In this document: positions 9,079-28,678 of the stretch, piece after piece
Numbering within the stretch: the first letter of the stretch is position 1
Layout of the letters: the number at the start of each line of letters is the position of its first letter
From: a virus
Length of the DNA stretch: 42,255 nt
Virus record (IMG/VR): IMGVR_UViG_3300006071_000024
Coordinates: 1 to 42,255 of that record
Direction: 5' to 3' (one strand)
Position numbers and translations under genes: made by a program
The notes under the pieces: model-generated
Told to the model about the DNA's origin: nothing
Databases searched by the model: none
The model's input: the letters and a program-made list of their open reading frames with translations, nothing else

Positions 9079-9087
9079 GGACACACC

Positions 9088-10206
9088 ATGTCAAGTACGT
9101 ATTCATCAGATCTACGCATCCAGCTTATGGGTACAGGCGACCAAGCCGGTACTTGGGGTGCGACTACAAACAATAATTTCCAATACATCTTTGAGCAAGC
9201 CATTGCCGGGGTGCAAACCGTATCTGTAACTGCTACCCCCCAAGCACTGACTTACCTCAACGGCGCGACCGCTACGCTGTCTAACAACCAAGCAATTGCT
9301 GCAGCATTGATACTAACAAACGGCGGAGTGAACGCTAACTTCACAATTACAACGCCGAGTGGATCACAAAAGTTATACATTATTTACAACAACACTTCGT
9401 ATACTGCCACTATACAGGTGACAAGCTCTTCTGGGGCAACAATAGCCATTCCTGCAGGAGTGACAACAACGGTCTATACAGACGGCACAAACTTCTATGC
9501 GGCAAATACTGGTACGGTTGGGGCTTATGGTGTTAATGGCGCGCTGACTGTAACAGGTAACGCATCGGTTGGGGGCACTCTTGGAGTAACAGGCAATACA
9601 ACACTGAGCGGCACTTTAGCCGTTACAGGTACAACAACACATACAGGCGCGGTTACGCTTAGCGGAGGCGGCACAACAACCACCCCATCTACTGGGGATA
9701 ACTCTACCAAGATTGCAACAACAGCGTTTGTACAAAGTGCGGCGATATCTTTAGCTACTATCTACCCTGTGGGTTCTATCTACATGAATACCAGCAGTAG
9801 CACTAATCCTGCTACGTTGTTTGGTTTTGGTACATGGACAGCGCTTGCTCCTGGACAGATGCTACTTGGTAATGGTGGAGGATATACCGCAGGTGCGACT
9901 GGCGGTTCTGCAACGACTACGATTAGTCTCTCAAACTTACCTCCTCACGATCACAGTATTAATGACCCTGGTCATCAGCACATTACAGGAGCTTATTATG
10001 GAGGTACCATATTACCTCCTGGTCCGTCTTATAGTAATATGGGAGCGTATGACTACCAAGTTAGTGGTGCTGCTGGTTTAGCGTTATCTTCAACTACAAG
10101 TATCTCAGTAAACACCACTCAAAAGAGTGGTTCCGCTTTCCCCAACACCGCAATGACGACAATCTCCCCGTATTTGGTTGTTTACATGTGGCAACGCACA
10201 GCCTAA
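9088..10206 (+). CDS. Tail fibre with C-terminal collar (gp10/microcystin-type) domain
   Basis: A 372-residue protein with AAGGACAC before its ATG. The N-terminus (YSSDLRIQLMGTGDQAGTWGATTNNNFQYIFEQAIAG) is a widespread virion-attachment domain of phage fibres. The middle holds short repeated VTGN/GTLxVTG units (about residues 150-200), typical of a triple-helical shaft. The C-terminal third (YPVGSIYMNTSSSTNPATLFGFGTW, then LPPHDHSINDPGHQH) is a collar-type domain like the C-terminal region of T4 gp10 and related fibres; the HDH and HQH clusters may bind metal. A receptor-binding role is likely. Confidence 0.75.
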   Translation: MSSTYSSDLRIQLMGTGDQAGTWGATTNNNFQYIFEQAIAGVQTVSVTATPQALTYLNGATATLSNNQAIAAALILTNGGVNANFTITTPSGSQKLYIIYNNTSYTATIQVTSSSGATIAIPAGVTTTVYTDGTNFYAANTGTVGAYGVNGALTVTGNASVGGTLGVTGNTTLSGTLAVTGTTTHTGAVTLSGGGTTTTPSTGDNSTKIATTAFVQSAAISLATIYPVGSIYMNTSSSTNPATLFGFGTWTALAPGQMLLGNGGGYTAGATGGSATTTISLSNLPPHDHSINDPGHQHITGAYYGGTILPPGPSYSNMGAYDYQVSGAAGLALSSTTSISVNTTQKSGSAFPNTAMTTISPYLVVYMWQRTA

Positions 10207-11785: not shown

Positions 11786-12368
11786 AGCAGCAAATATTGA
11801 TTTAGGTCATGCTGAGGCGCTTATGCCCGGCATGGAAGCCGCCATTCAACATGCAGAACTCAATACTCCAGAACGCCTAGCGGCTTTTATTGCGCAGTGT
11901 GGGCATGAATCAGGTGGATTTAAATTCTTTGAAGAAAACTTGAACTACAAAGCTGAGTCGCTTATTCGCACTTGGCCCAGCCATTTCAATGAGGAGAATG
12001 CCAATGAATACGCGCATAACCCAGAAAAAATCGCAAACCGGGCATACGCTAACCGCGGCGGAAATGGAGATGAGGAATCGGGTGATGGCTGGGCAAATCG
12101 AGGCAGAGGCGCGATCCAGCTTACCTTTAAAAACAACTATGAAGAATGTTCCCGTGACTTGGGATACGATTTCGTATCAAATCCTGATGCTGTCTCAACG
12201 CCTGAAGGCGCGCTTATCACTGCGGCGTGGTTTTGGAAAAAGAACAATTTGAACCATCATGTTGATAACAATGATTTCACAGGATTGACGAAAGCCATAA
12301 ATGGTGCGACAATAGGGTTCGAGGATCGCATGGCCCGCTTCAATCATGCTATGACCGTTTTTGCGTAA
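11763..12368 (+). CDS. Endolysin, glycoside hydrolase family 19
   Basis: A 201-residue protein matching the GH19 chitinase-like fold used by many phage endolysins to cut the peptidoglycan glycan backbone. The catalytic acid region is HESGGF (Glu49), and the second acidic region is FFEENLNYKAESL (about 56-67). Further family features are NRGRGAIQLTFKNNY (the substrate-groove Gln/Tyr region) and TAAWFWKKNNLN. The length is that of a single-domain enzyme with no cell wall-binding or signal segment, so it depends on the holin for release. It follows Rz/Rz1 with a 23-base overlap. Confidence 0.9.
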   Translation: MEAQQLAEAANIDLGHAEALMPGMEAAIQHAELNTPERLAAFIAQCGHESGGFKFFEENLNYKAESLIRTWPSHFNEENANEYAHNPEKIANRAYANRGGNGDEESGDGWANRGRGAIQLTFKNNYEECSRDLGYDFVSNPDAVSTPEGALITAAWFWKKNNLNHHVDNNDFTGLTKAINGATIGFEDRMARFNHAMTVFA

Positions 12369-12379
12369 ACGAGGTAGTT

Positions 12380-14464
12380 GTGCCATTAACCAAACTCGAA
12401 TTTAGACCGGGCGTTAACCGAGAAGCCACGACTCTCGCTAATGAGGGTGGTTGGTACGACTGTAATAATATTCGTTTTCGTTCAGGCTATCCCGAAAAGA
12501 TTGGTGGGTGGGTAACCGATACCGGCACAGAGTCCACGACCCAAATAGCAACATACCCCGCAGCAGATCAAAACCTTCCCACCGCAACACCCCCTACCAC
12601 ATCAGGCTACAACACAGCGTCTTTCTGGGGAGTTTGCCGTAACTTATGGGCATGGTTAAACCTTGCCGGTTACAACTTATTAGGTCTTGGCACTAACCTA
12701 AAATACTATATTCAAAACGGTATTGGCGGAACTTTTTATGACGTTACACCCATACGCACAACTACAACGCACACTGCCACTTTTGCGGCGACCAACGGTT
12801 CTACAACTATTACAGTTACCGATTCGGCTAACGGTGCACAGGCTGGAGATTTTGTAACTTTTAGCGGCGCTGTGTCCTTGGGCGGTGTTATAACGGCTTC
12901 GGTGCTTAATAGAGAATACCAAGTTGTTGCCATTACAGGCGCAAATACATACACCATAACAACCAGCGTTGCAGCAAACAGTAGTGATTCAGGAAACGGC
13001 GGAACCTTAGTAGTTGCAAACTATCAAGTTAATACAGGTAGTTCAATATACACGCAAGCGCTAGGTTGGGGTGCAGGCGGATGGGGCGGAGCTACAACAG
13101 GGCTTTCTTCAACAGGTTGGGGGCAACCGGCATCTTCTGGGGTGGGCGAACAACTTCGCTTGTGGTCATCCGCTAATTATGGACAAGATTTAATCATCAA
13201 TCCAAGCGGCAGCCAGATGTATTATTGGGCGGTGAACGCGACGGCGACTACATTTGATAGGGCGCAAAACTATACCGCCAGTGCGACTATTACAACATCA
13301 ACAGGCACCTTCACTTGCGACTCTACCACGCCAAGCTTGGTTAACTATGTGATGGTGTCCGATGCGTCGGACTTTGTAATTTGTTTTGGATGTAATGATC
13401 CATCAGGCGTTGTGGGTCCGACATACCTTGATCCTATGTTTGTACGTTGGTCTGATCAACAAAACGCAGGGGTTTGGAACCCAACAGCAACGAATCAGGC
13501 GGGCAGCTACCGGTTGTCTCAAGGATCGCAAATTGTTTCTGCTATACCTGCTCAGCAAGGTATTTTAATTTTTACAGACACGACTGTTTATATCATGCAG
13601 TACGTTGGCACGCCTTATGTCTGGGGCTTCCAACCAATGGCGAGCAACACCTCTATCATGGGTCCCAATGCAGCCGCCAACATTAATAACATTGTGTACT
13701 GGATGGGGTATAACAAGTTCTATTATTACAACGGTACAGTACAAACCCTACCCTGTGCAGTTCGTGAATATGTGTTTGACAACATTAACTTGTCTCAATC
13801 TGCGCAAGTCTATGCAGGTACCAACGAAGCGTTTAACGAAGTATGGTGGTTCTACCCATCTGTTACTGGGCGCAATAGCGACGGCTCGCTGGGTACTTTT
13901 ACGCCGTCTAACCCTAACACGCTAACTGATTCTTATGTGATTTACAACTACGTAGACCAAACGTGGTACTACGGCGCTATGCAACGCACTGCGTGGCTTT
14001 ATTCGCCCCTTAGACAGACACCCGTGGCAACCAATTATTATGGGCAATTGACGTATCAAGAAAACGGTGTGAACGATGGAACGACTAACCCAGCTAGTCC
14101 TATTAATGCTTTCATCCAAAGCTCTGATTTCGATATTGGTGACGGTAATAATTTTGGTTTTGTGTGGCGTGTTGTTCCTGATATAAACTTTACGGGATCG
14201 TACAACCCCAACCCAACGGTCAATCTGACACTTCTTCCAAGACAAAATCCTGGAGCTAATTACGGCACTTCCAACAATCCAGGAATAACCAGTCAGCAAA
14301 ACTATACGCAAGAACGCGAGTACTTGATCCAGACTTTTACGCCGCAAATCTATGTCAGGGCAAGAGGACGCCAAATGGCGCTTAAGATTCAGTCTACAGG
14401 TTTGGGCGTGCAGTGGCAGTCAGGCGCGCAGCGCTTGGACATTCGTCCTGACGGGAGACGTTAA
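12380..14464 (+). CDS. P22 gp10-like tail / packaged-DNA stabilisation protein
   Basis: A 694-residue protein with a GTG start and GAGGTAG upstream. The N-terminus (LTKLEFRPGVNREATTLANEGGWYDCNNIRFRSGYPEKIGGW) is the signature of gp10-like proteins that form the tail hub or nozzle below the connector and keep DNA in. Beta-propeller-like strands follow (LWSSANYGQDLIIN, MFVRWSDQQNAGVWNPT, GILIFTDTTVYIMQYVG). Residues about 131-216 are a Thr/Gly-rich segment (NGSTTITVTDSANGAQAGDFVTF) that looks like an inserted beta domain. It is separated from the other connector genes by the fibre cluster and lysis cassette. Confidence 0.75.
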   Translation: MPLTKLEFRPGVNREATTLANEGGWYDCNNIRFRSGYPEKIGGWVTDTGTESTTQIATYPAADQNLPTATPPTTSGYNTASFWGVCRNLWAWLNLAGYNLLGLGTNLKYYIQNGIGGTFYDVTPIRTTTTHTATFAATNGSTTITVTDSANGAQAGDFVTFSGAVSLGGVITASVLNREYQVVAITGANTYTITTSVAANSSDSGNGGTLVVANYQVNTGSSIYTQALGWGAGGWGGATTGLSSTGWGQPASSGVGEQLRLWSSANYGQDLIINPSGSQMYYWAVNATATTFDRAQNYTASATITTSTGTFTCDSTTPSLVNYVMVSDASDFVICFGCNDPSGVVGPTYLDPMFVRWSDQQNAGVWNPTATNQAGSYRLSQGSQIVSAIPAQQGILIFTDTTVYIMQYVGTPYVWGFQPMASNTSIMGPNAAANINNIVYWMGYNKFYYYNGTVQTLPCAVREYVFDNINLSQSAQVYAGTNEAFNEVWWFYPSVTGRNSDGSLGTFTPSNPNTLTDSYVIYNYVDQTWYYGAMQRTAWLYSPLRQTPVATNYYGQLTYQENGVNDGTTNPASPINAFIQSSDFDIGDGNNFGFVWRVVPDINFTGSYNPNPTVNLTLLPRQNPGANYGTSNNPGITSQQNYTQEREYLIQTFTPQIYVRARGRQMALKIQSTGLGVQWQSGAQRLDIRPDGRR

Positions 14465-15005: not shown

Positions 15006-16217
15006 ATGGGTATGTTTGACAATATGTCTTTTGGTGAGAAGCTGCTTGGATTAGCAGCTTTAGGTACTGTGGGAGTGATGACAGGTGGCGCAGGAGATGC
15101 GGCAATACTTGGCGGTGCAGGAGATGCTGCAGGTGCAGATTTAGCCGCTTCTGGAACAGCAGGGGGTATGGCTAATATGGGCGGTTCTGCCTTAGCTACC
15201 GGCGATGCGGCAACTACAATTCCAAGTGGTGTAGCCAGTATGGGTACGCAAGGAGCGGGGGTTACAAATGCTGCCGCAGCTGCGGCAGATACAGGCGCTG
15301 GGGCCGGAGTGTCTTCTACTGCCAGCAACCCTTCTTACTGGGAACAGTTTAAAAATTCTAATTTTGTAAATAACATGACAACCCCCGCTGCTGGTGCAAC
15401 AGGTACATGGGGAACAGGTGCGGGATATGGCCCTGCAGGACAAGCCGCTATGATTGGCGGCGGAATAGCCGGAATAAACTATTTAAATAGAAGACCGCCT
15501 GTGCCTGGAGTTCCTGCAGATACAGGTCCGCTTAGCAAACTGTACGGCGCGCAGGGTGTGCAGTACCCTAACAATTACGGTGGATATCCAACGCAACATG
15601 CAGCAGGTGGTGGGCTGATGCAATTGACAGCTAACCCAAATCCTCCTATGGCGTATAACATGACGCCAACTTATAACAGCGCAACAAGCACGCCGGTACC
15701 TCAGTCTGTTCTTCACTACGCATCAGGCGGAGCAACACTATCAGACGTAACCGCACCTGCCCCAAGTTCTGGCGCGTACGATCAATACAGCGCTTACCTA
15801 CAAGCCGCGCAAGCTGCACAAGACCAACAAGTTGCACAACAGCAAGCACAACAAGCTGCGCAACAACAGTCCATGATGCCGGGGCCTTCTATCGCTGCAG
15901 CTAGTGGTGGTATGATGAATTTTGCACAAGGCGGCATTTCTGATCTAGGTCATTACTCAGACGGAGGGCAGTTGCTCAAAGGTCCTGGTGATGGCATGTC
16001 GGATTCCATTCCAGCTACGATTGCAAATAAGCAACCTGCACGTTTAGCTAACGATGAGTTTGTAGTTCCAGCCGATGTTGTTTCACACTTAGGAAACGGC
16101 TCATCTGATTCCGGCGCTAAGAAACTCTACGACATGATGGACAGAGTAAGGCGCGCTCGAACAGGTTCGCCTAAACAAGCCAAAGCCATTCACCCAGATC
16201 GGTATATGCCCGGATGA
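15006..16217 (+). CDS. Ala/Gly-rich internal virion protein (403 aa)
   Basis: A 403-residue protein with AGGAG before its ATG. The first 180 residues are Ala/Gly-rich and fairly hydrophobic; residues about 255-300 are Gln/Ala-rich (QAAQDQQVAQQQAQQAAQQQ). The C-terminus has a conserved block (GPGDGMSDSIPATIANKQPARLANDEFVVPADVVSHLGNGSSDSGAKKLYDMMDRVR) that I recognise from ejection-region proteins of T7-like and aquatic phages. It is the first gene of the ejection-protein group and overlaps the GNAT-like gene by 4 bases. Confidence 0.7.
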   Translation: MGMFDNMSFGEKLLGLAALGTVGVMTGGAGDAAILGGAGDAAGADLAASGTAGGMANMGGSALATGDAATTIPSGVASMGTQGAGVTNAAAAAADTGAGAGVSSTASNPSYWEQFKNSNFVNNMTTPAAGATGTWGTGAGYGPAGQAAMIGGGIAGINYLNRRPPVPGVPADTGPLSKLYGAQGVQYPNNYGGYPTQHAAGGGLMQLTANPNPPMAYNMTPTYNSATSTPVPQSVLHYASGGATLSDVTAPAPSSGAYDQYSAYLQAAQAAQDQQVAQQQAQQAAQQQSMMPGPSIAAASGGMMNFAQGGISDLGHYSDGGQLLKGPGDGMSDSIPATIANKQPARLANDEFVVPADVVSHLGNGSSDSGAKKLYDMMDRVRRARTGSPKQAKAIHPDRYMPG

Positions 16218-16618
16218 AAATTGAACTAGTCCCCCAACAATTAACCGCCCAAGTATTTCCTTTGGTGGCTAAGTTTTTTGAACGCACTATTCCTTATAGT
16301 GGCGGGGACTATTCTTTAGAACAAATTCAAATGGCAGTCAATCAAGGCGGATGGTCTTTAGTTGTTGCATCTGACGAAACAGGCATAGTTGGCGCAATGA
16401 CGCTGGTTTTTATGAACTACCCAAATGACAGAATTGCTTTTGTGACAAGCACCGGTGGTAAAAATATCTGCACTAAAGACTCACTTATGCAATTAAAAAA
16501 TATTGTTCGCGCGATGGGCGCAACAAAGCTTCAAGCAGGAGGGCGGGATTCCGTTACGCGCATGCTTGCATCATTCGGATTTAAAAAACGGTACACAGTA
16601 GTTGAGACTACTATTTAG
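16214..16618 (+). CDS. GNAT-fold protein, T7 gp13-like position
   Basis: A 134-residue protein with the strand-helix order of the GNAT acetyltransferase fold: an N-terminal helix region, WSLVVASDETGIVGAMTLVFM (central strands), and an end GATKLQAGGRDSVTRMLASFGFKKRYTVVETT. The usual acetyl-CoA loop (Q/RxxGxG/A) is not obvious, so it may be non-catalytic. T7 gp13, a small protein of the internal core, has a related fold and the same place before the large ejection proteins. A virion-assembly role therefore seems likelier than acetylation. Confidence 0.6.
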   Translation: MKIELVPQQLTAQVFPLVAKFFERTIPYSGGDYSLEQIQMAVNQGGWSLVVASDETGIVGAMTLVFMNYPNDRIAFVTSTGGKNICTKDSLMQLKNIVRAMGATKLQAGGRDSVTRMLASFGFKKRYTVVETTI

Positions 16619-16627
16619 GAGTAACTT

Positions 16628-19303
16628 GTGAATTTATTATTTAAACTACTTGACCCACGCAGTATTATTGCGCAGTTCACTTTATACGCGGGAGGCGGAG
16701 GAAGTACTCCTGCAGCTACCAGTCAAACAAATACGGTGTCAAGTATTGCTCCGTGGGCACAGCCAGGAGTTGAACAGCTTATCTCCACAGGTTTGCAAAA
16801 CGCCTATCCGAATTACAACCCCAGTACAGGACAGTTAGGCGCTCAAAACGGCTATACACCTTTTGACCCGACCAATACGTCAAATCCTGCAATGATGCAA
16901 GCCTATAGTGCAGGGCAAAATACAACCGCCGGTTTCTCACCCTTGCAACAACAGTCGTTTAATACAGCGGCTAATATGCAAGTACCCGGGCAATATAACG
17001 CGGCAACAGGACTAAATACACAAGCCGGATATGGGGCACTTGGCACAACGGGCCAAGCTAATATGTATGGGCAAATGGGCGCTATGGCTGGAAACAGCTA
17101 TGGCATGAATGCTCAAAATGTAAATGGGATGCCTTCTTCCACGGTTCAAAATTACATGAACCCCTATTTACAAAATACGTTACAGCCGTCGCTTCAATTA
17201 CTTAACCAACAGTACGGCATGCAAAATGCCGCTAACAATGCACAAGCAACACAAGCCGGAGCTTTTGGCGGTTCCCGTATGGGCGTGCAAAACGCGCTTA
17301 CTAATCAAGCACAGAACTTAGCAACAAACCAATTAGTTGGCAACGCATACAATCAAGCATATAACACCGCTAACACCAACATGCAGACTGCGGCTAACTT
17401 GGGTATCCAAGGCGCACAAGCGGGGCTTGCCGGTATCGGCGCACAACAAGCAGGATACAACTCTGCAGGTGCGGCGGGTTCTAACTTATCAAATATTGGT
17501 ACTGCACAACTGGGCGCCCAACAAAGCGTGGCAGGATTGCAAAACGCGTACGGTGCGCAACAGCAACAGCAGCAACAAAACGTTCTTAATGCTGGTGCAC
17601 AAAACTACAGCACCATGCAGGCATACCCCATGCAGCAATTGCAGCAGTTGGAAGGACTCTACACAGGAGCGCCAACAAACACAACTACACAGAATTACCA
17701 AGCGGCGCCAAGCACTGTATCTCAAGTTGCCGGTCTAGGTATGGCTGGTTATGGTTTGAGTCAATTAGGTAGTGGGTCTAACCCACAATCTGCCACACCT
17801 GCTGCCAAAGCTAAAGGTGGACGCATTAAAGAATTTGGTATTGACAAGTTGTCCGCAAAGAACCTTGAATCTTTTAAAGAAGGTGGCATTACTGGTGGGC
17901 GCATGGAAGATGGCACTCGCCGGTTTGATATTGCGGGTTCCGTAAAAACAACCGCCCCTACCAATTCAGATGATAGCGGGCTTTTCACTGCTGCTGATTA
18001 TTCTTTGGGTACGCAAGATCCACGTTTGTATAGAGACAGCACGCTTAACACGGCTCAAAAATTTAATCCCACACAACTTCAATTACTTCAGCAAAACCCC
18101 AGTTCTGGCACAAATTTTACAGGTTATCCAAATGCTAACTCAGGCGCTGTTCTTGGGGGGCAGCAGTATCCCAAACTAAGCCAAAACGTACTAGCTCAGT
18201 TTTTGCAAGCCCAACAAAACTTGCCTGATGCAAGTCCTGCCGCAAACAGTAACACAAGTATGGATAATCTTGCTGCTGCGGGAGCAAATACAGCTTCTAC
18301 AGAGACTCCACCTACCCCCTACAAGCCACCTCAAGTTGGCTTACCTTCCTTATTATCAACAAACTCTATGACTCCAGAGCAAGCTAAACAAGCAAGCTTG
18401 CAGTTTTATAATCCTGCAGACTCGCAAAAAGCATGGGAACAAGAAAAAGCGGATTTGCAGCAAGATATTTTAAATAATAAAGCGGCTAGGCAGGAGATGT
18501 ACAAAAACCGTCCTGTCCTTGGTAAAAAACAAGAAGAGCTTTTAGATAAAGCAGAGGCTAAAGACGATAAAAAATTATCAGATTTAAGAGCTTCCAGTTG
18601 GTTGGAAGCCGGTTTAGCTGTGCTTGGCGGGACGTCTCCTAACGGTCTTATTAATTTGTCTAATGCTAAAGAAGGACTCAAGTCTTACAAGGAAGGCCTT
18701 AAAGATTTGGATAAAGCTAAAGATGTTAGAGATCAAGCACGCGGACACATTGAGGATATGCGTAATGCACAGCTTATTGGCGACCAGAATGCAGAACAAA
18801 CAGCAAACGAAAATTTTTCCGATAAGCTGCATACATATAACATGCACCTGTTGAACGCACACGACAATATGTCTGGCGTTTCTGCGGGAATATCATCGGG
18901 CATCTTTGGTAGAAGTCAAGATACAGCAGCCGCTAATGCGCGAGCTAACTTAGGTGCAGCGACTGAAGTTACTAAAACAAATGCGCTACTTCAACAACCT
19001 CCAGAACAAATTCGCTCAGCTCTATATTTGGGTAATGGTGACGCACTCAAAGGTATAAACATACTACAAGAAGCTATGCGAGATAAAACAGGTGTCGGAC
19101 TTGTAACTGCGTTGGAAGGAATTAACACAAAACGCGAAGCGGCAATGCAGCCTGCGATTACAATGCAACAGCTGCTAGATGAAATTAAACAGTATCAGTC
19201 ATCAAGCGGTTTAGGTTCCTTGCCTACGGGTCAACCCAATGCAACAGCACCTAGGTCAGCTTCGACTAGTTGGGGTAAGTTTCAACAAGTTACAGGTCCT
19301 TAA
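16628..19303 (+). CDS. Large Gln/Ala-rich internal virion (ejection) protein
   Basis: An 891-residue protein with a GTG start preceded by AGGAG. Residues 1-380 are Gln/Ala/Asn/Gly-rich (TANMQVPGQYNAATGLN, AQATQAGAFGGSRMGVQNAL). A conserved-looking block at about 397-425 reads KGGRIKEFGIDKLSAKNLESFKEGG. Residues about 600-740 form charged coiled-coil helices (KAWEQEKADLQQDILNNKAARQEM). Position after the gp13-like gene and before the giant protein matches T7 gp14/gp15-type ejection proteins. No enzyme motif was seen. Confidence 0.65.
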   Translation: MNLLFKLLDPRSIIAQFTLYAGGGGSTPAATSQTNTVSSIAPWAQPGVEQLISTGLQNAYPNYNPSTGQLGAQNGYTPFDPTNTSNPAMMQAYSAGQNTTAGFSPLQQQSFNTAANMQVPGQYNAATGLNTQAGYGALGTTGQANMYGQMGAMAGNSYGMNAQNVNGMPSSTVQNYMNPYLQNTLQPSLQLLNQQYGMQNAANNAQATQAGAFGGSRMGVQNALTNQAQNLATNQLVGNAYNQAYNTANTNMQTAANLGIQGAQAGLAGIGAQQAGYNSAGAAGSNLSNIGTAQLGAQQSVAGLQNAYGAQQQQQQQNVLNAGAQNYSTMQAYPMQQLQQLEGLYTGAPTNTTTQNYQAAPSTVSQVAGLGMAGYGLSQLGSGSNPQSATPAAKAKGGRIKEFGIDKLSAKNLESFKEGGITGGRMEDGTRRFDIAGSVKTTAPTNSDDSGLFTAADYSLGTQDPRLYRDSTLNTAQKFNPTQLQLLQQNPSSGTNFTGYPNANSGAVLGGQQYPKLSQNVLAQFLQAQQNLPDASPAANSNTSMDNLAAAGANTASTETPPTPYKPPQVGLPSLLSTNSMTPEQAKQASLQFYNPADSQKAWEQEKADLQQDILNNKAARQEMYKNRPVLGKKQEELLDKAEAKDDKKLSDLRASSWLEAGLAVLGGTSPNGLINLSNAKEGLKSYKEGLKDLDKAKDVRDQARGHIEDMRNAQLIGDQNAEQTANENFSDKLHTYNMHLLNAHDNMSGVSAGISSGIFGRSQDTAAANARANLGAATEVTKTNALLQQPPEQIRSALYLGNGDALKGINILQEAMRDKTGVGLVTALEGINTKREAAMQPAITMQQLLDEIKQYQSSSGLGSLPTGQPNATAPRSASTSWGKFQQVTGP

Positions 19304-19309
19304 AACATC

Positions 19310-22300
19310 ATGCCACTCTATAGCATACAAGCCCCAAACGGGCAAACATACCAGATTAAAGGGCCCGAAGGTGCGTCACAAGATCAGGTTATCAACGAAG
19401 TACTAAGACAGCATCCCGACGCTGAAAAGGTTCCTTCATCTGGAATGATGTCTGCGCTGAGCTCAGGTTTTCGCCAGGGTGCAGGTTCTGCGGCACAAGG
19501 GTTAGGCGAGTTTGCGGGACTGGGTGGCTTGGCTGATTACGGTAAACGTATGCAAGAGTCTGCAGCTACAAGCTATAGACCTACCTCACAAGAAGATATT
19601 GAAGCCGCCAAAGCAAGGGGTTTGTTGCCAGAAGCCGGTGCATACTTAAGTAAATATTTAACTGAACCTGTCGGAGAAATGGCAGGTAGTATGGCAGGGC
19701 GTTATGGATTACCTGCACTTGCCGCTTACGCCGTTCCCGAAGCTGCTTTAGGAGGCGCTGCCGCTACAGCCGCTTTTGCTGGTGTTAATCTTCCAATGTA
19801 TGCAGGTGAGGAAATAGCTGCGCAAAAGAAACGCGGTGAAGATCCAAGCTATGCAAAAGCAATTATTTCTGGTATCGCACATACAGCCATAGACGCTGTT
19901 GCGGGACACGTGCTTGCTAAACCCCTTAGTGGATTAATAGGAAAGACTGCGCAAGAACAAGCCAAGGATTTGGCACCTGAAGTGTTAGCCGGTAAGATGA
20001 CTGCCGAACAAGCCAGCGCTAAAGTTGGTGGAGCACTCCGTAACTTTTTACAAGGCACCGCTCAAAATGCGGTTGTTGGTCCGGGCATGATGCTTGGGCA
20101 TGACATTATTTCTCGTATATCCGCCGGTGAAGATTTAACTTCCGAAGACGCACTCAATCAATACGGTCAAAGTTTAAAGTCTGGATTAGCGGCAGCGCCA
20201 TTGTTTGGTGCGTACAGCGGGTACTTAGAAGGTAAAGGCGCAGCTGGAACTTTAGAAAAAGCACGTCAAGATCGCGTGGCTATACAGCAAGAAGAAGCAA
20301 AGAAAACACAGCAACAAGAGGAAGCTGCTAAAAACTCTCCCGAGTACGCACTGGACATTGAGCAGAAGTACGCCGAAGCTGAGAAACAAAAAGCTGATCT
20401 GCTTGCGCAAAGGCGCACTATTGAGAAAGGTTCGCCTACAGAAAGCGCGGACAAAGAGTACAACCGCATCATTAGTCAAAAACTGCAAGAGCATTACAAA
20501 GAAACACTGGCACCGCTTGCAAGAGAGAAAGCCCGTCTTGAGTCTCAAGGGGTTATGCAAACAGCAAAAGAATCTGCGCGTACAGCACAAATGTCACCTG
20601 AAGACTATATGCTTGAGCAATTGACAAAAGACCAAGAAGGAATACAAGCACGAGGAAGACCTGCGCAGGGATTAGGTACAGTTGAGGAACCCGAACCTGC
20701 AGTTGATACAACTGTTCACGATTATGCTAATGGGCAAGTCGAAGCTGCTAAAAGTGTTGGCTACACAGATCTAGGTGATTATGCAGACTACATAATGGAA
20801 AAACCTGAGCTTGCTGCACAGTATGTTCAGACACGTCCAACACTACCTGGGCTTACTAAGAGTGAAAATAGCTCGCTGTTATCGGGCGTTAAATTACGGT
20901 TGCAAGACCGCGAAAAACAAGCACGTAATGCTTCTAAAAACGAATTAGAAAATCGTCAAGCAGACTTGAAAATGCAGCAGGTGTCAGCGCTTAATGATCC
21001 ATTGGAGATGCTAAAAGCTTCTCAGGAACAAGTTGAAGAACACAACCGCACAGCGGAGTCCAACTTTGATTATCTTGACCCTGTGTTTGAAAAAGCTACC
21101 AATGGGGAACCTGTTGTAGCGGTTAATCCTGATATTAAACCTGATGGCAGGCGCGTTGTAGTTGATGGCAAGCCTGTATCGCAAGTTGATTTAAAGCGTA
21201 ATCGTATTGACTCTTTGTTGACGGACGTTCAAGAGGCGGATAGAGAAGCTGTCGCAGCTAGACAGAACAAACAACCCGACGCTGTTATAAATGCTCGTCA
21301 ACGACGTGCCAAAGCTTTGTCTGAACTAGACATGTTGTCGTCTGAAGAAGGCAACCCATACGCTAAAGAATTTATCAGCGCCAGACGTTCACAAGAACAA
21401 GCTTTGGGCGTCATGGAGGACATGCTGCATCGTGTGAAGTCTAATAATGCTTTAGGCAAAGATGTTCCTATCAACGAAGAGACAGGCGAACCAGAGTATG
21501 GCAAAGGCACTGCTGCTTCTACACAAAAATCTCTTTTAAATAAAGCTGACCAGGCAAGAGCGCAATACATAACTTCTGTTCTACAGGAAGCCGCGCTGCA
21601 CAGACGTGCTAAAGGTTTAGCACCGCTTTCAACAGACGAAGCACTTAAGTCCGCTTCACAACTACACGATACTTTGTCCGAATGGATGGAGCGTGTTCAT
21701 GCTGCACCAATACGTTTAACAAAAATTGTGACTAAACCTGCAGTGTACAAAGGGCGCGCAGAAAAAAGGGTCATGGTTGCGCCCGAAGAATTTGAGATGC
21801 GTGATTTGCGTCCTACTGAGGAACGTAGATTTGGCGCATATGATAAAGCAATTCAGGTTATTAAAGAGCAACTCGATGGGTTACGCGAAGATATAAGCAA
21901 TCCTGAAAGTAAACCCAAACGTGAAGAACAGCTATTAAAACGTCAGTTTGCCACAACTGAGGCGCAAAAAGTTGCTGAGGCAAGAGGCGAAACAGCTACA
22001 ACGCTTGGTGGTGAATTGCGTAGACGTACAGAATATGTGCGGGATAAGATGACTAAGATGGGCCCTATGCGCCCTGCGGCTAGAGGTGTTCTTAATAAAG
22101 CTGCAGACCTTATGGACGAAGGCAAAGCTTCGCGTCAATTATTAGATGCCACAGAAGAATTAGTAGATCGTATTAATTCAGGTCGCCAAGTCACACAAGC
22201 AGATGTACGCGCTGTCAACGATGCGCTTGCCGCAGGTAAATCCACTGCAATGGAGCAAAAAGCTGCGGGACAAATGTCGCTGTTTCCTGAAAAAGAAGCA

Positions 22301-25300
22301 GACTTGGGATACATCCGCGCTACTCCTGCTAACTTTGCCAAAGCTCCAAAACTTGTTGCCGCACGAGCTGCTGTGGATGAAGCACGTAGAGTTGTTAGAA
22401 AAGCTGAGCTAAGCAAAAATGCCAAGACGCAAGTACAAACAGAGCGTGTAGAAGAACTTAATAAGCTTCAGGCAACAATAGAAAACATTAAGTCAGACAC
22501 CAAGTTCTCTCAAGCAGGCACAAGTCTTTGGAGTCCTAAAGATATTGCTCGCGCGTATGTGGGGCAAGCCGAGTTTGGTAAAACGCCAGAAGAAAAGAAA
22601 ATTGTTTCTAAGTATCTAAAAGGCGAAACACTGACGCCTGATGAAACTTTTGAACTTAATAGAACTTTGGCAGACTTTAATGCAGACAGAATAACAGTTA
22701 AAGCTAACACAGAAGCTGCGCAGCGTTTAGTTGCCGAAGGCAAACGTTTAGAAGATGCTAATAATAAACTTCTTAAATTTATGCAGGACTCTAATGAGTC
22801 TGTAAGAAAAGCAGCTAGAGAAAGACAACAAGAGTTAGCACTACCTCTTGCCACAATAAGACGTATTAAGAGCAACATGGTCGCAAAAAAGACCATGACA
22901 CCACAAGAAAAAGCCGTGCACGAAGTTGAAGGTGCGCTTGGTGATGCCAAAGCATATTACCAAAACGTAATAGTTTCTACGATGGAGCGGGTTGAAAAAG
23001 ACATTGAACAAGCACGCGCTGATTTATTAAACCCTCAAATTGCAAAAGCATCAGAAGCACTTAAGACCGCACAAGACAGTCTTGCCAAAGAAAGTGCAGA
23101 GCTTGAAAAAATAAACAAACGTTTAGAAGGCACGCTCACTCAAAAAGAAGGCAAAAATCGTACACAGTTGGCTACGTATCAATTGTTTAAGTACGAAGAA
23201 AAAAAGGGCATCCTTGAAGATCTACAAAAAAATGTAAAAGAACAACAAGACGCATTGAATAAAATGTTGGATGAGCGTTATTCTGAAATAGAAAGCGCTC
23301 ACATTGTTGGACAAGCTATGCTTGATGGTAACGTCAAAATAGAACGCGACTTTATTATTTCGCTTGAAAAGAAGTTAGCAAAAGCAAAAGGCGAAAATGT
23401 TGCGGACAATCCTAACGAGTACCCTTACTCTAACCAACGTATAGTATCGCGTGAAGAAAGAGCTAGGCTTAAGCGTATTCAGGAAAAAACCAAGGAGTTA
23501 AACCTTGAACCTATAAAGTTTAAGAATCCAAAGACAGGCGAGTTAGAAGAAATAAACCCAGCATCTTTGCCATCAGGCACTGAGAAGTTGCGTCAATATA
23601 TTATTGCCGCTGAGAACAGATTAGAAAACGCAGAAAGAAAATCTGAAGTCTTTAAAGAAAAAGCCGAGTCTTTAGAAATTAAATTGCAACGCGGTCTTGG
23701 TTTACCAGGTGTACGTCATGAACAAGGCAAACGCGGTACAGAAACTTTACTGTCTGCAGAAGAACTTGAAGCAGAAAAACGCCGGGAAGAAAGCTTAAAA
23801 GCTACCAAACAAATGTCTGAAGCTGAGAGGGCTGCTGAGATTAGGCGCTTGCATGAAGAGTCAATGCACGACCAGTTGTTTAAGTTGTCACAAGAAGCAG
23901 CTTCTTATAAAGGCCCAGAAGACTTAGACAAACTGGCAGATCTGGCTGCTTCTGATAATATAACCAAACAAGACCGTGCGGAATATTTATCCAAGATTAA
24001 TGCGCTCAATAAAATGAAACTTATTGAGGAGCAAATGCAGGCTATTAAAGAAGGTAAGCCACGTCGCAAAGGTCCTGCTGAAGTTGAAACTACTGCCGCA
24101 CAGTCTGCTAAGAAACCGTTTAGATCTGCATCTGAGGATGCCATTGCCGCCAGAAGACTAAAAGAACAAGGCGAAGTTGAACGCAAGGCCGATGCACTAC
24201 TTGCAAAAGAACGCGCTAAGCGTGATGCAAGTTACGAAGATTATGACCGCTTTTACTCACGCGGTGAAGCTACTGCGCCTCACACAAAAGAATCTTTGGA
24301 AGCCGAGCTTAACAAAGCTATGGGCGAACGCGTTACCGGCAGACCTGAAGAAAAAATAACGCATAAACTACAAGTATTTGATTCTGTAGACGACTACATT
24401 AAACAATCAAGACAGCCTTTACTTAACGGCAAAGGTGGTCCAAAAATAAAAATTCTCGAAGACGAAGCTATTCCTAAAGACGCAAAAGGGTTTGTTGACC
24501 CAGAGGGCAGAGCCGTTCTTTTTGCTAACAACATTAATAAAGGTCAAGGACTTAGTGTTCTTTTACACGAAGTTGGAGCGCACTTAGGTTTTAGAAACTT
24601 TTTTAATGAAGGGCAGTACAAAGCTCTTGCACAAACGGTTAAGAGCTGGGAAAAAAGAAACGACGATTCAATTGAAGCTCGCGTAGCCAAAGCTGCTCGT
24701 GCTAGGGTAGAAGCCGCCAAGACTAAAGCAAGTCAAGTTGACGATGAAATGATAGCCTACACCGTCGAAGAGGCAATTAAAGCGGGCGTAGATCCTACAG
24801 GAACTAAAAAAGGCGGGGCGCTTCAAAACTGGTTGAACATGATTGTTAACTCGTTTAAAAACGTCCTTAAGAAGTTTGGTTTAAATCCTAAAGAACTTAA
24901 CGCGCAAGACCTTGTCGATCTTGCTTATGGCGCCGCACAGCTTGAACTTAAAGGCACATGGCACGGTACCGCCGCAGATTTTGGCGAGTTTGATTTTGAT
25001 TACATGGGCAAAGGTGAAGGCGCGCAAGCATTTGGCTGGGGTAGTTACCGCGCTCAAAGCAAAGGCATAGCAAAAACTTACGAAGAAACTGCATTAAACA
25101 AAGCGCTAGGAAGAATTAACAAAGACCCCAAAATGATAGAGTGGGTTGAAAAAACCGAACCTACTTTTAACGGTGCAAAAGCAGAAGACCTTAGAGATTG
25201 GGCAATGACTCACGGCGGTAAATACGACTTGAGCAGAACACTGGCTGACGGCACTACTGAAAAAGTAAAAAATCCAGGAATTCCAGAAGATTATTTATCC

Positions 25301-28300
25301 GCTGTGCAAGAGGTTTTATCAAACGCTAAAAAAGCTTTAGTGGACGGCAACACAAAACCGGGACAAGAAGAAACAAAAAAAGAAAATCTTTACTCAGAAC
25401 TAAGATCGCTAGCTGAACAACAAAGAAATAAAGATTTATTAAAGTACAACAACGTTGTTGCAGGAAGCACAGATGTGTTTAGCAATGTTGAACGGCCCAC
25501 AGAAAAAGAATTTCATAAATTTTTAGATGAATTTGAAAATTGGGTTAATAAGCAAGAAAAAAATAACAGCGGTTTTCAACAGCCGAAGATTACACAGGCG
25601 CCGTTATCTTTGCCAGCAGGCGCAATGTATCGCACGTTACATACACGCCCTGAAGAACACTACTTAGATTTAGACGCGCATCCTAACGATCAAAACTCAT
25701 ACATTAAAGATAAGTTACGCAGTCTTTTTGAACAGTTTAGCCCAGAATATAAACGCGTTTTTAACAAGCATTTATCAGAAATTCCTGAGAACCGTCAAAA
25801 AGGTAAGCACATTGTTCACGCGATTGAAGATGCCCTAAAACAAAATGGATTTGAAGAACGTCTAGCACCTGAATTTGCTTCACGTATCATGCACGCTGAA
25901 GGTATTGCTGGTAGTAAATACTGGGATAACAGTTCACGTTTTGAAAAAAACGGATTTAAAAATTATGTTGATTTTGGCGATAAAGAAGAAGGCGCGGCTA
26001 TTCTCGGTAAAAACTTAAACCCAATAGGACCTGCACAAGAGCGCCTATACTCAAAAGGTGCTGAGTTTGACGAAGACAACGCCTTAACTAGACTGTCTGG
26101 AAAAGTAATTGCACAACCAAAGTCTTTTAAAGAAAAGTACTTTAACAATGCCGCTTTAGCAACAGAAATGAACTTGGTTGATATGCGCGCACCTCTTCGT
26201 GAAGCGTTAAAGCAAGGTGCCGAAGGTATTAACAAACCACAAGTTTATCAACAGGCTATGTACCATGTGGTTAAGGCAGATCAAAAGCTGTCTCTTGCCA
26301 TGACTACGCTTAGCAAAGGTCCTCTTGAAATCTACAAAGACGAGAAGGGTTTGTACGGCGTACGCAGTACAAATCAGAATAACGCTAAAGACGTGTTCGA
26401 TGCCATGTCTAAGATACCAGGCGCTAATGCGCAAGGCAAAGTTGATTTAGCAACCACATATATGGTTGCGCAACGTGCGCTGAACAAAGGCGCAAATCGT
26501 TTAGATAGTGGTGCATTAGGTGTAAAAGAAGAAGATCTAAAAGCCGCGCTTGCTGATGTAGAGTCTAAGCCAGAACTCAAAGCAGCATTGGAAGACGTAC
26601 GTAATAAATACAACGCATACAATAAAGGTCTTATAGAATTTAACGTACAGGCTGGCGCCATATCTAAAGAAGTCGCCGCAAAGCTCTTGCAAGACAAGGA
26701 CTATGTTCCGTTCTACCGCGTGGACAATAACGGTAATGCGAGTTTAGTGTTTAACGATAACGTGCAGATAAACATTGGTGACATCAGACGTCAACCTTAT
26801 TTGCACGCACTTAAAGGCGGCGAGACAAAGATTCTTCCGCTTAACGAATCGTTAATGCAAAACACTATGTTGTTAACTGACAAAGCCATGACAACCATGG
26901 CGCAAAAGTCGGTTGCTTACGCTCTCCAAGAAATTGGTTCGGCACGCGGCAAAGACAACGACATGCTCATTAAACGCGGATCAGGTCCTGCAGGTCCCGA
27001 CATTATTCACTTTAACGTAGCGCCCGATCCCGCAAGACCTGACGACGATGGTAAGCGTTGGATTAAAGTTGACACTAAAAACACGCTGATGGAAGGCGTC
27101 AGTCCAGAGCTCGTTGTTAAGAGCTTAGAGGGTACTAACTTAACTTTACCCGCCTTCTTAAAACTAGGGGGCGCCGCTTCTGACATGCTTCGCAGTGGGG
27201 TAACACGTACTCCGCTTTATGTTGCGCATCAGTTGTTGCGCGATCCAATGGCAGCTACTTTTACTGGTGGCGTCAGAGGCAATCCTTTAACAGCGGTGTA
27301 CAACGCAAGCAAGCATTTCCTTAGTATGCAAATGAACACCAGTAAGACTGGTGAAGCGCTCATAGAAAAAGGACTTATTCAAAGTAACATTTTCAAAGGC
27401 GACAGCAGCGACGTATCTAAGTTTGCCAAACAACTTGCTAGTGGTAAAGATGTGGGCGCAATACAAAAGCTTGTCAATTTCGCCGACAAAATGGCGATGG
27501 ATGCTGACGCCGCTACACGTGCACTAGTTTACGAAAACGCGTTAAAGAGCGGGTTGTCTGAAGTCGAAGCTGATATGATGACTATGGAGTCTATAAACTT
27601 CCATAAGCAAGGGCTGTCTTCTTCTGTTCAATACGCCAACCGTTTAGTTCCTTTTATGAACTCGCAGACACAAGCGCTTAATGTGTTTGCTAAAGCGGCT
27701 CGAGGCAATATGCCTTTTAACGAACAGTTGAATATTAAGAAGAAGTTTTTTAACAATGCGTTGATGCTGTCTGGTTTGGGTATTGCTTACGGCATGGCGC
27801 TATCAGATAACGACTACTTTAAAAACGCAAAGCCCGCAGACCGCTACGGTAATATGTTTGTGTTTTTACCCGGTATCGACGAGCCTTTTAAAATACCAGT
27901 TCCTTACGAGGTTGGCTATTTCTTCTCTATGGGTGTGGCGGCGGCTGATGGTATGCGCAACGAAGTGACAGGCGAAGAACAAGTCAAAGCTTTAAAAGGG
28001 ATGTTTTTAAATTCTGTCCCCGGTTACAGCAGTAAGTTTGTACCACAACTGCTTAAGCCAATAGCGGAAGTTGCAACCAACAAAGACTTCTATACAGGCG
28101 CACCACTTGAGTCAGCCAGACTGCAACAGCTTGATCCTGCCCAACGCTTCACTGCCAATACAACTGAGATAGCTAAGTACCTTGGAACCGTACTACCTGG
28201 TGTGTCTCCCATTCAAATCGAACATTTAGTGCGTGGGTACTTTGGGCAACTACCGCTTATGGCGGCGGCTTCAACCAATGACATGTTTAGACAAGGCAAT

Positions 28301-28678
28301 GAAAAGCCTGCGGCGCGCATCACAGAAATGCCGCTTATTGGAAGTGCTTTCCAAAAGAAATATGGCGGGGGTGACGAAAGTGAAGCCTACTCCGAAGCTC
28401 AGGACGCCATCAAAGCGCAGAATACTTTTAATGCTATGGCTAAAGAAGGTCGAACTGATGAAGCACGTCAGTTCATGAAAGACAACAAAGACCGTTTGAT
28501 ATTAGCTAAAAGCGCCAACCAGTTTCAAACTACGATGGCTAAGTTGGCAGCTAATGAACGTATGATTCAAAACATGCCAAACCTTAATGACCAACAGAAG
28601 CGTCAACGGTTGGATCAAATTGATCAGATACGACAACGTTTTTCTGCGAACTTCCGTAAGATGGCTGAGCGCGTATAA
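19310..28678 (+). CDS. Giant polyvalent ejection protein (3122 aa) with peptidase-like and ART-like domains
   Basis: A single uninterrupted 3122-codon gene, 22% of the window. Order: residues 1-42, a small beta module (YSIQAPNGQTYQIKGPEG); about 45-310, Ala/Gly-rich hydrophobic helices that could insert in membranes; about 310-1640, long Glu/Lys/Gln/Ala coiled coils; about 1690-1830, a metallopeptidase-like domain with LLHEVGAHLGF (H1753, E1754, H1758, an HExxxH form) and a downstream DDEMIAYTVEE that may give the third ligand; about 1884-2225, an ADP-ribosyltransferase-like domain (WHGTAADF, then GEGAQAFGWGSY, ending GSKYWDNSSRFE and NYVDFGD); about 2280-2480, a charged helical part; about 2600-3000, an LPD38-type ejection domain (RTPLYVAHQLLRDPMAA, LVPFMNSQTQALNVF). 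It takes the place of T7 gp15/gp16. I saw no SLT transglycosylase motif. It is probably injected with the DNA. The domain calls rest on motif memory. Confidence 0.75.
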   Translation: MPLYSIQAPNGQTYQIKGPEGASQDQVINEVLRQHPDAEKVPSSGMMSALSSGFRQGAGSAAQGLGEFAGLGGLADYGKRMQESAATSYRPTSQEDIEAAKARGLLPEAGAYLSKYLTEPVGEMAGSMAGRYGLPALAAYAVPEAALGGAAATAAFAGVNLPMYAGEEIAAQKKRGEDPSYAKAIISGIAHTAIDAVAGHVLAKPLSGLIGKTAQEQAKDLAPEVLAGKMTAEQASAKVGGALRNFLQGTAQNAVVGPGMMLGHDIISRISAGEDLTSEDALNQYGQSLKSGLAAAPLFGAYSGYLEGKGAAGTLEKARQDRVAIQQEEAKKTQQQEEAAKNSPEYALDIEQKYAEAEKQKADLLAQRRTIEKGSPTESADKEYNRIISQKLQEHYKETLAPLAREKARLESQGVMQTAKESARTAQMSPEDYMLEQLTKDQEGIQARGRPAQGLGTVEEPEPAVDTTVHDYANGQVEAAKSVGYTDLGDYADYIMEKPELAAQYVQTRPTLPGLTKSENSSLLSGVKLRLQDREKQARNASKNELENRQADLKMQQVSALNDPLEMLKASQEQVEEHNRTAESNFDYLDPVFEKATNGEPVVAVNPDIKPDGRRVVVDGKPVSQVDLKRNRIDSLLTDVQEADREAVAARQNKQPDAVINARQRRAKALSELDMLSSEEGNPYAKEFISARRSQEQALGVMEDMLHRVKSNNALGKDVPINEETGEPEYGKGTAASTQKSLLNKADQARAQYITSVLQEAALHRRAKGLAPLSTDEALKSASQLHDTLSEWMERVHAAPIRLTKIVTKPAVYKGRAEKRVMVAPEEFEMRDLRPTEERRFGAYDKAIQVIKEQLDGLREDISNPESKPKREEQLLKRQFATTEAQKVAEARGETATTLGGELRRRTEYVRDKMTKMGPMRPAARGVLNKAADLMDEGKASRQLLDATEELVDRINSGRQVTQADVRAVNDALAAGKSTAMEQKAAGQMSLFPEKEADLGYIRATPANFAKAPKLVAARAAVDEARRVVRKAELSKNAKTQVQTERVEELNKLQATIENIKSDTKFSQAGTSLWSPKDIARAYVGQAEFGKTPEEKKIVSKYLKGETLTPDETFELNRTLADFNADRITVKANTEAAQRLVAEGKRLEDANNKLLKFMQDSNESVRKAARERQQELALPLATIRRIKSNMVAKKTMTPQEKAVHEVEGALGDAKAYYQNVIVSTMERVEKDIEQARADLLNPQIAKASEALKTAQDSLAKESAELEKINKRLEGTLTQKEGKNRTQLATYQLFKYEEKKGILEDLQKNVKEQQDALNKMLDERYSEIESAHIVGQAMLDGNVKIERDFIISLEKKLAKAKGENVADNPNEYPYSNQRIVSREERARLKRIQEKTKELNLEPIKFKNPKTGELEEINPASLPSGTEKLRQYIIAAENRLENAERKSEVFKEKAESLEIKLQRGLGLPGVRHEQGKRGTETLLSAEELEAEKRREESLKATKQMSEAERAAEIRRLHEESMHDQLFKLSQEAASYKGPEDLDKLADLAASDNITKQDRAEYLSKINALNKMKLIEEQMQAIKEGKPRRKGPAEVETTAAQSAKKPFRSASEDAIAARRLKEQGEVERKADALLAKERAKRDASYEDYDRFYSRGEATAPHTKESLEAELNKAMGERVTGRPEEKITHKLQVFDSVDDYIKQSRQPLLNGKGGPKIKILEDEAIPKDAKGFVDPEGRAVLFANNINKGQGLSVLLHEVGAHLGFRNFFNEGQYKALAQTVKSWEKRNDDSIEARVAKAARARVEAAKTKASQVDDEMIAYTVEEAIKAGVDPTGTKKGGALQNWLNMIVNSFKNVLKKFGLNPKELNAQDLVDLAYGAAQLELKGTWHGTAADFGEFDFDYMGKGEGAQAFGWGSYRAQSKGIAKTYEETALNKALGRINKDPKMIEWVEKTEPTFNGAKAEDLRDWAMTHGGKYDLSRTLADGTTEKVKNPGIPEDYLSAVQEVLSNAKKALVDGNTKPGQEETKKENLYSELRSLAEQQRNKDLLKYNNVVAGSTDVFSNVERPTEKEFHKFLDEFENWVNKQEKNNSGFQQPKITQAPLSLPAGAMYRTLHTRPEEHYLDLDAHPNDQNSYIKDKLRSLFEQFSPEYKRVFNKHLSEIPENRQKGKHIVHAIEDALKQNGFEERLAPEFASRIMHAEGIAGSKYWDNSSRFEKNGFKNYVDFGDKEEGAAILGKNLNPIGPAQERLYSKGAEFDEDNALTRLSGKVIAQPKSFKEKYFNNAALATEMNLVDMRAPLREALKQGAEGINKPQVYQQAMYHVVKADQKLSLAMTTLSKGPLEIYKDEKGLYGVRSTNQNNAKDVFDAMSKIPGANAQGKVDLATTYMVAQRALNKGANRLDSGALGVKEEDLKAALADVESKPELKAALEDVRNKYNAYNKGLIEFNVQAGAISKEVAAKLLQDKDYVPFYRVDNNGNASLVFNDNVQINIGDIRRQPYLHALKGGETKILPLNESLMQNTMLLTDKAMTTMAQKSVAYALQEIGSARGKDNDMLIKRGSGPAGPDIIHFNVAPDPARPDDDGKRWIKVDTKNTLMEGVSPELVVKSLEGTNLTLPAFLKLGGAASDMLRSGVTRTPLYVAHQLLRDPMAATFTGGVRGNPLTAVYNASKHFLSMQMNTSKTGEALIEKGLIQSNIFKGDSSDVSKFAKQLASGKDVGAIQKLVNFADKMAMDADAATRALVYENALKSGLSEVEADMMTMESINFHKQGLSSSVQYANRLVPFMNSQTQALNVFAKAARGNMPFNEQLNIKKKFFNNALMLSGLGIAYGMALSDNDYFKNAKPADRYGNMFVFLPGIDEPFKIPVPYEVGYFFSMGVAAADGMRNEVTGEEQVKALKGMFLNSVPGYSSKFVPQLLKPIAEVATNKDFYTGAPLESARLQQLDPAQRFTANTTEIAKYLGTVLPGVSPIQIEHLVRGYFGQLPLMAAASTNDMFRQGNEKPAARITEMPLIGSAFQKKYGGGDESEAYSEAQDAIKAQNTFNAMAKEGRTDEARQFMKDNKDRLILAKSANQFQTTMAKLAANERMIQNMPNLNDQQKRQRLDQIDQIRQRFSANFRKMAERV

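What the first reader, a model, noticed from the sequence alone, without database searches (positions are those of the whole stretch)
19310..28678. 3122-residue ejection protein carrying peptidase-like and ADP-ribosyltransferase-like domains
Seen: one open frame of 3122 codons with an HExxxH motif (H1753-H1758), a downstream WHGT...GEGAQAFGWGSY block with a matching end (KYWDNSSR, NYVDFGD), and a C-terminal block typical of phage polyvalent ejection proteins (LPD38). Known: polyvalent proteins combine enzymatic domains delivered with phage DNA, and ART domains modify host proteins or nucleic acids. Inference: this phage may inject an ADP-ribosyltransferase and a peptidase within its core protein, with host takeover or defence-blocking as the purpose. 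The HExxxH spacing is unusual for zincins and could be a diverged site.
Basis: partly seen in the sequence, partly recalled or inferred. Interest (0 to 1): 0.75.

Follow-up and report, generated by a model that had tools for sequence, protein, structure and literature searches.

The report
Phage ejection protein with enzyme cassette
A phage encodes a 3122-residue protein, probably packaged in the virus and ejected into the bacterium, that carries a protease-like domain next to a swappable ADP-ribosylating enzyme; the kind is known, but the fixed-protease-plus-exchangeable-effector layout and the conserved 'FSR' motifs on either side are new, testable details.

Summary
In detail: one 3122-codon frame at 19310-28678 with HEVGAH (1753-1758), WHGT...GEGAQAFGWGSY (1884-1913), NYVDFGD (2218-2224) and LPD38 (2848-3010, Pfam E 2.4e-28). 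The reading is mostly right. A confident model of residues 1700-2244 (pLDDT 88.6) puts H1753/H1758 on one helix and E1813/E1820 on a later one; its best PDB match is a solved phage pre-ejectosome protein (cyanophage A4 gp27, Z 11.2) that carries a YHGT...GSGTYF motif; next is an ART-fold RES toxin (weak). HExGxH is invariant in 72 distinct relatives and not a curiosity: HEXXXH peptidases and H-Y-D ARTs in polyvalent proteins were described in 2017. New here: (i) the ART is an exchangeable cassette behind a fixed zincin (47 of 72 chains carry this ART type, 14 another, the rest LPD23, a Tat-like segment, an unidentified one or none); (ii) [FL]SRG lies just upstream of the zincin in 55 of 72 chains and nowhere else in 144,692 residues, with xFS[RK] after the cassette in most, suggesting processing sites. 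Catalysis, zinc binding, cleavage and injection are unproven.

The parts
19310..28678 (+). 3122-aa polyvalent ejection-type protein
19310..19429 (+). short N-terminal region (residues 1-40, YSIQAPNGQTYQIKGPEGASQDQVINEVL); most relatives start with a comparable short segment of one of several types
24251..24265 (+). FYSRG (1648-1652): upstream junction motif; S1650 R1651 G1652 are the only invariant residues between 682 and 1665 in a 15-chain alignment
24461..24949 (+). HExxxH zincin-like peptidase domain (about residues 1718-1880)
24566..24583 (+). HEVGAH 1753-1758 on helix 1747-1764
24746..24748 (+). E1813, invariant, on helix 1807-1824; most likely third zinc ligand (E1820 the alternative)
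24950..26044 (+). ADP-ribosyltransferase-like cassette (residues 1881-2245), exchangeable between relatives
24953..24970 (+). ART strand 1, GTWHGT (1882-1887), H1885
25013..25048 (+). GEGAQAFGWGSY (1902-1913), Y1913 on the next strand
25061..25561 (+). mostly helical insert inside the ART fold (about 1918-2084), variable in length between relatives
25961..25981 (+). ART strand 5, NYVDFGD (2218-2224), N2218 invariant
26045..26056 (+). LYSK (2246-2249): the window's version of the post-cassette L-[FLY]-S-[RK] junction motif
27851..28339 (+). LPD38 domain (2848-3010)
16628..19303 (+). neighbouring gene, 891 aa, PHROG 'DNA ejection protein' (E 3.3e-10), directly upstream

Best explanation
This is a phage-type polyvalent ejection protein. 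Shown by sequence and model: LPD38 at the C-terminus, an HExxxH zincin-like domain upstream of it, and between them an ART-like cassette that related phages exchange for other modules. Inferred from relatives: the chain is packaged in the virion and expelled with the DNA. Inferred from motifs and fold: the ART uses NAD+ to ADP-ribosylate a host macromolecule (or consumes NAD+) early in infection. Most speculative step: the zincin cuts the chain at the FSR-type junctions on either side, releasing the zincin-ART module (about 600 residues) from the part that stays with the ejection machinery.
For: LPD38 E 2.4e-28; adjacent 'DNA ejection protein' gene. Model of 1700-2244, pLDDT 88.6, pTM 0.79, with zincin-like helices and ART-like strands carrying the invariant residues. 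Best PDB match is cyanophage A4 pre-ejectosome chain 9k3a_B, Z 11.2 over 176 residues; then a RES (ART-fold) toxin, Z 5.2, on the ART half, and a lethal factor N-terminal region, Z 4.9, on the zincin half. 9k3a_B is A4L_27, which has YHGT...GEWGSGTYF at 1425-1450. Named phages with LPD38 and HExxxH but no ART between them have 708-735 residues from H to LPD38; the window has 1095, longer by about the cassette length of 364. Cassette exchange on the zincin tree: 10 changes, with at least 2 each for A and B forced by well-supported branches. L044 (ART-A) and L184 (ART-B): about 20-32% identity in the cassette, about 90% after it. A giant LPD38 protein, Burkholderia phage JC1 gp69, was found in purified virions by mass spectrometry with 51 unique peptides (PMC9144972). 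[FL]SRG in 55 of 72 chains just upstream, none in the other 144,692 residues; xFS[RK] or xLS[RK] downstream in 63 of 72. FS[RK] beside the zincin in 3 of 6 unrelated named phage families, chance about 8e-4.
Against: No activity, zinc, cleavage or packaging was measured for this family. The ART is below the Pfam cut-off, and plain Foldseek against the PDB found nothing significant. The RES and lethal-factor matches are at a level where unrelated folds also appear, and the range of the A4 match is so wide that its assignment to the ART part is inferred. N4 vRNAP, which also carries a zincin, is packaged unprocessed (PMC5512222). The motif test was post hoc; three of the six named families lack the motif. 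Sharing of the motif within the 72 chains is partly common descent.
Confidence: 0.68

Rival explanations
1. The zincin-like domain is structural (needed for packaging or for building the ejection channel) and never cuts; the FSR motifs are only linkers or recombination boundaries that let cassettes be exchanged.
For: N4 vRNAP carries a zincin-like domain in a region needed for encapsidation, yet the protein is packaged unprocessed. Cassette exchange itself favours conserved sequence at junctions. L184 carries FSRGAPAD on both sides of its module.
Against: HE, the second H and the helix-2 Glu are invariant in diverged relatives, which a purely structural role would not demand. SRG is kept while the linker around it is hypervariable.
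Confidence: 0.4
2. The ART-fold cassette does not modify a protein: it degrades NAD+ (as RES toxins do) or modifies nucleic acid, as a fast shut-down or anti-defence effector.
For: Second-best fold match of the ART half is a RES-type toxin (Z 5.2); ART-fold enzymes that modify RNA or DNA are known (abstracts; PMC9503650).
Against: Closest described relatives (polyvalent ART, H-Y-D clade) were predicted to act on proteins; the RES match is weak.
Confidence: 0.25
3. The ART cassette is dead or decaying.
For: Third catalytic residue cannot be assigned; D2221 is not conserved outside the close family.
Against: H1885, Y1913, Y1924 and N2218 are invariant in 45 diverse sequences; the cassette is kept as an open frame in dozens of phages.
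Confidence: 0.08

Closest known systems
Phage-type polyvalent proteins (Iyer et al. 2017, PMC5512222)
   Same: Giant chain in phages, LPD38, zincin-like MPTase including an HEXXXH class, ART with H and Y on strands 1 and 2.
   Different: The paper, as searched here, mentions cassette-like recombination for kinase loci and predicts autoproteolysis, but a linker or cleavage-site motif was not found in it; nor was a fixed zincin with an exchangeable internal effector.
Cyanophage A4 (A-4L) gp27, pre-ejectosome protein, PDB 9k3a
   Same: Protein of a solved pre-ejectosome with a YHGT...GSGTYF motif; best structural match.
   Different: 1717 aa, no HExxH or HExxxH, no LPD38 hit, ART-like motif near the C-terminus; too far for profile detection.
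Burkholderia phage JC1 gp69 / Bcep22 DarB-like giant proteins (PMC9144972)
   Same: LPD38 about 115 residues from the C-terminus; giant virion protein downstream of head-closure and acetyltransferase genes.
   Different: 4515 aa with methylase/helicase-like and LPD3 regions; no ART reported in that table.
Escherichia phage PTXU04 gp25, Vibrio phage 1.232.O gp28, Aeromonas phage phiARM81mr p69
   Same: C-terminal region homologous to the window protein and an HExxxH zincin upstream of it (LPD38 scanned and found in 1.232.O and phiARM81mr).
   Different: No ART found between zincin and C-terminal region; other N-terminal enzymes in 1.232.O and phiARM81mr.
Phage T4 Alt
   Same: ART carried in the head and injected with DNA (from the literature, PMC5512222).
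   Different: R-S-E class, separate smaller protein, no peptidase.

Membership tests
Phage-type polyvalent protein with LPD38 | LPD38 domain above the curated cut-off | tested here: met
   99.9 bits against 27, residues 2848-3010
Phage-type polyvalent protein with LPD38 | Several unrelated domains in one chain, gene beside virion/ejection genes | tested here: met
   zincin-like, ART-like and LPD38 regions; upstream gene is PHROG 'DNA ejection protein'
Phage-type polyvalent protein with LPD38 | Present in the virion and delivered to the host | not testable with these tools
   only by analogy with JC1 gp69 mass spectrometry (PMC9144972)
HEXXXH class of zincin-like MPTases of polyvalent proteins | HEXXXH motif on a helix | tested here: met
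   H1753-H1758 on helix 1747-1764; motif in all 72 relatives
HEXXXH class of zincin-like MPTases of polyvalent proteins | Glutamate on a second conserved helix | tested here: met
   E1813 and E1820 invariant on helix 1807-1824
HEXXXH class of zincin-like MPTases of polyvalent proteins | Zincin fold | tested here: inconclusive
   weak match to lethal factor's N-terminal region (zincin-like by my own knowledge), Z 4.9, not above unrelated rows
HEXXXH class of zincin-like MPTases of polyvalent proteins | Zinc bound, peptidase activity | not testable with these tools
   no coordinates of the model, no experiment
ART-PolyVal (PF18760) | Score above Pfam's cut-off | tested here: not met
   13.6 bits, E 0.12; 5 of 29 relatives match at E 0.01 or better, best E 0.0023. 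Formal PF18760 membership is not claimed
ART fold, H-Y clade | His on strand 1 and Tyr on strand 2 | tested here: met
   H1885 on strand 1882-1887, Y1913 on strand 1912-1915, invariant in 45 rows
ART fold, H-Y-D clade | Asp on strand 5 | tested here: inconclusive
   D2221 only in the close family; N2218 invariant in 45 rows; D2224 invariant in the 29-row alignment A4
ART fold | Structural match to an ART-fold protein | tested here: inconclusive
   9k3a_B Z 11.2 (chain carries an ART-like motif) and 9r35_D RES Z 5.2 on the ART half; supportive, but the range of the first match is wide and the second is weak

The most novel reading that the evidence does not exclude
The HExxxH zincin is a built-in processing protease with conserved F-S-[R/K] target sites on either side, and phages use this fixed protease-plus-sites frame as a loading bay: any effector cassette placed between zincin and the downstream site (two ART types, LPD23 region, Tat-like segment, others) is ejected and then cut free.
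Probability: 0.3. Interest if true: 0.75.

Novelty: new member of a known kind. Interest (0 to 1): 0.48.

Why it matters
How giant ejected phage proteins deliver enzyme activities, and whether they are cut after delivery, has been an open prediction since 2017. This family offers a compact test: two candidate cut sites, a protease-like domain between them, natural variants that differ mainly in the cassette, and a solved ejectosome protein with an ART-like motif for comparison.

Tried and rejected
First AlphaFold2 model from a shallow alignment (29 close rows) had pLDDT 68.8 and gave no PDB match, though it matched viral models named ART-PolyVal-like; replaced by the diverse 45-row alignment. 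Foldseek against the PDB with the better model: nothing at E<=0.001. Profile search of PDB sequences with A4 and A9: only chance-level hits. Full-chain profile A6 hit moesin and kinesin, which I read as coiled-coil composition. Relatives in GTDB genomes: none. Direct profile comparison of the window ART with the ART-like region of A4L_27: probability 1.3, so that link rests on fold and motif only. D2221 as the third catalytic residue: not accepted as the sole candidate because it varies in distant relatives. Chance alone for the junction motif: rejected for the family, but common descent cannot be separated from constraint there, hence the separate test on named phages. Promoter and terminator scans of the region: not above shuffles. 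Literature search for proteolytic processing of polyvalent proteins found no experimental mapping.

Full report
Observation. The 3122-codon frame and all quoted motifs are present at the stated coordinates. Pfam gives LPD38 at 2848-3010 (E 2.4e-28); ART-PolyVal appears only below its cut-off. The gene directly upstream (16628-19303) matches a PHROG 'DNA ejection protein'; the window also holds SU10-adaptor-like proteins, a virion structural protein, a GH19 endolysin, and on the other strand primase, helicase and DNA polymerase A genes. G000 is a virus record of 42,255 bases.

Relatives. The first IMG/VR scan with residues 1690-2249 found 18 loci, and profile scans found more; GTDB genomes gave none. 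In 72 distinct chains the motif is always HE[VIL]G[AVTGS]H. The diverse zincin alignment A8 keeps H1753, E1754, G1756, H1758, E1813, A1816, Y1817, E1820 and E1821. Zincins of five named phages (Vibrio 1.232.O, PTXU04, phiARM81mr, Y11, Y7) align by profile at E 2.8e-15. Iyer et al. [quoted passage not shown]), so the spacing is a known variant.

Structure. With a diverse 45-row alignment AlphaFold2 gave pLDDT 88.6, pTM 0.79 for residues 1700-2244. HEVGAH lies on helix 1747-1764, E1813 and E1820 on helix 1807-1824, preceded by short strands. The ART half has strands at 1882-1887 (H1885), 1912-1915 (Y1913), 2105-2110, 2201-2205, 2217-2221 (N2218) and 2230-2234, with a long helical insert. VIA-align put cyanophage A4 pre-ejectosome chain 9k3a_B first (Z 11.2, 176 residues), then a RES toxin on the ART half (Z 5.2) and the N-terminal region of lethal factor on the zincin half (Z 4.9). 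9k3a_B is A4L_27, and its sequence holds YHGT...GEWGSGTYF at 1425-1450; that motif was looked for after the structural match. No coordinates are returned, so residue clustering was not measured.

Cassette exchange. Behind the zincin, 47 of 72 chains carry ART type A (as here) and 14 type B, in which the H and Y motifs are kept (profile match to type A at E 2.3e-12 over its first part) and the end reads YVERAFI or YIERAYI. The rest carry an LPD23-containing segment, a Tat-like segment, an unidentified one, or nothing. The zincin tree needs 10 changes of type (shuffles 23.6); starred branches alone force at least 2 each for A and B, and two nearly identical zincins (L222, L223) are followed by different modules. 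L044 and L184 are about 90% identical after the cassette and about 20-32% inside it. In two LPD38 phages without an ART there the spacing from H to LPD38 is 708 and 735; here it is 1095, longer by about the cassette's 364 residues.

Junction motifs. In the 15-chain alignment the only invariant residues between 682 and 1665 are S1650, R1651, G1652. [FL]SRG occurs 65-120 residues before the HExxxH in 55 of 72 chains and nowhere else in 144,692 residues; [LIMFYPT][FL]S[RK] occurs after the zincin in 63 of 72, a looser count, and LFSR follows the cassette whatever its type. In named phages of other families FS[RK] lies beside the zincin in 3 of 6, chance about 8e-4 by composition shuffles. The motif was chosen after seeing the family, the stretch tested was loosely set, and shared descent inflates the family counts. 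Cleavage there is a hypothesis.

Delivery. Not tested here. Support is by analogy: JC1 gp69, a giant LPD38 protein, was found in purified virions with 51 unique peptides (PMC9144972), and the A4 protein is part of a solved pre-ejectosome.

Verdict. A new member of a known kind: a polyvalent ejection protein with a zincin-like and an ART-like domain. The fixed zincin with exchangeable cassette and flanking FSR motifs is the part worth following.

Noticed in passing
L203, L206, L207, L209, L223 (just after the zincin): A twin-arginine-like segment (MSRRxFLRGAxAA) follows the zincin directly; Pfam TAT_signal E 9.7e-4 for L207, below cut-off. If the zincin cuts nearby, it would sit near a new N-terminus.
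   Followed up: partly
L003 about 8360-10170; L019 about 12110-14140: In these two relatives the giant frame ends early and the C-terminal part continues in another frame from a similar place; split gene, frameshift or sequencing error.
   Followed up: partly
window 16214-16618: Small GNAT-like ORF (my reading; no Pfam hit) between virion and ejection genes, at a position like the acetyltransferase-like genes of phiGT1 and JC1.
   Followed up: no
L123-L145: Other polyvalent proteins carry the same ART, sometimes in two copies, often followed by a [KR]F[SF]-type segment after the last strand.
   Followed up: partly
L191, L198: Cassette holding LPD23 (PF18838, E 1.8e-20 in L198) and, in L198, a further HEVQH motif: a possible second peptidase in the ART position.
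   Followed up: no
window 98-577: Gly/Gln/Met-rich low-complexity ORF of 159 aa at the start of the window, with a 33-nt imperfect tandem repeat.
   Followed up: no
L065:4918-6081 (Sulfitobacter phage phiGT1 gp5): Separate ART-PolyVal-like gene (30.0 bits, cut-off 31.2) near the portal gene: a related ART outside a giant protein.
   Followed up: no
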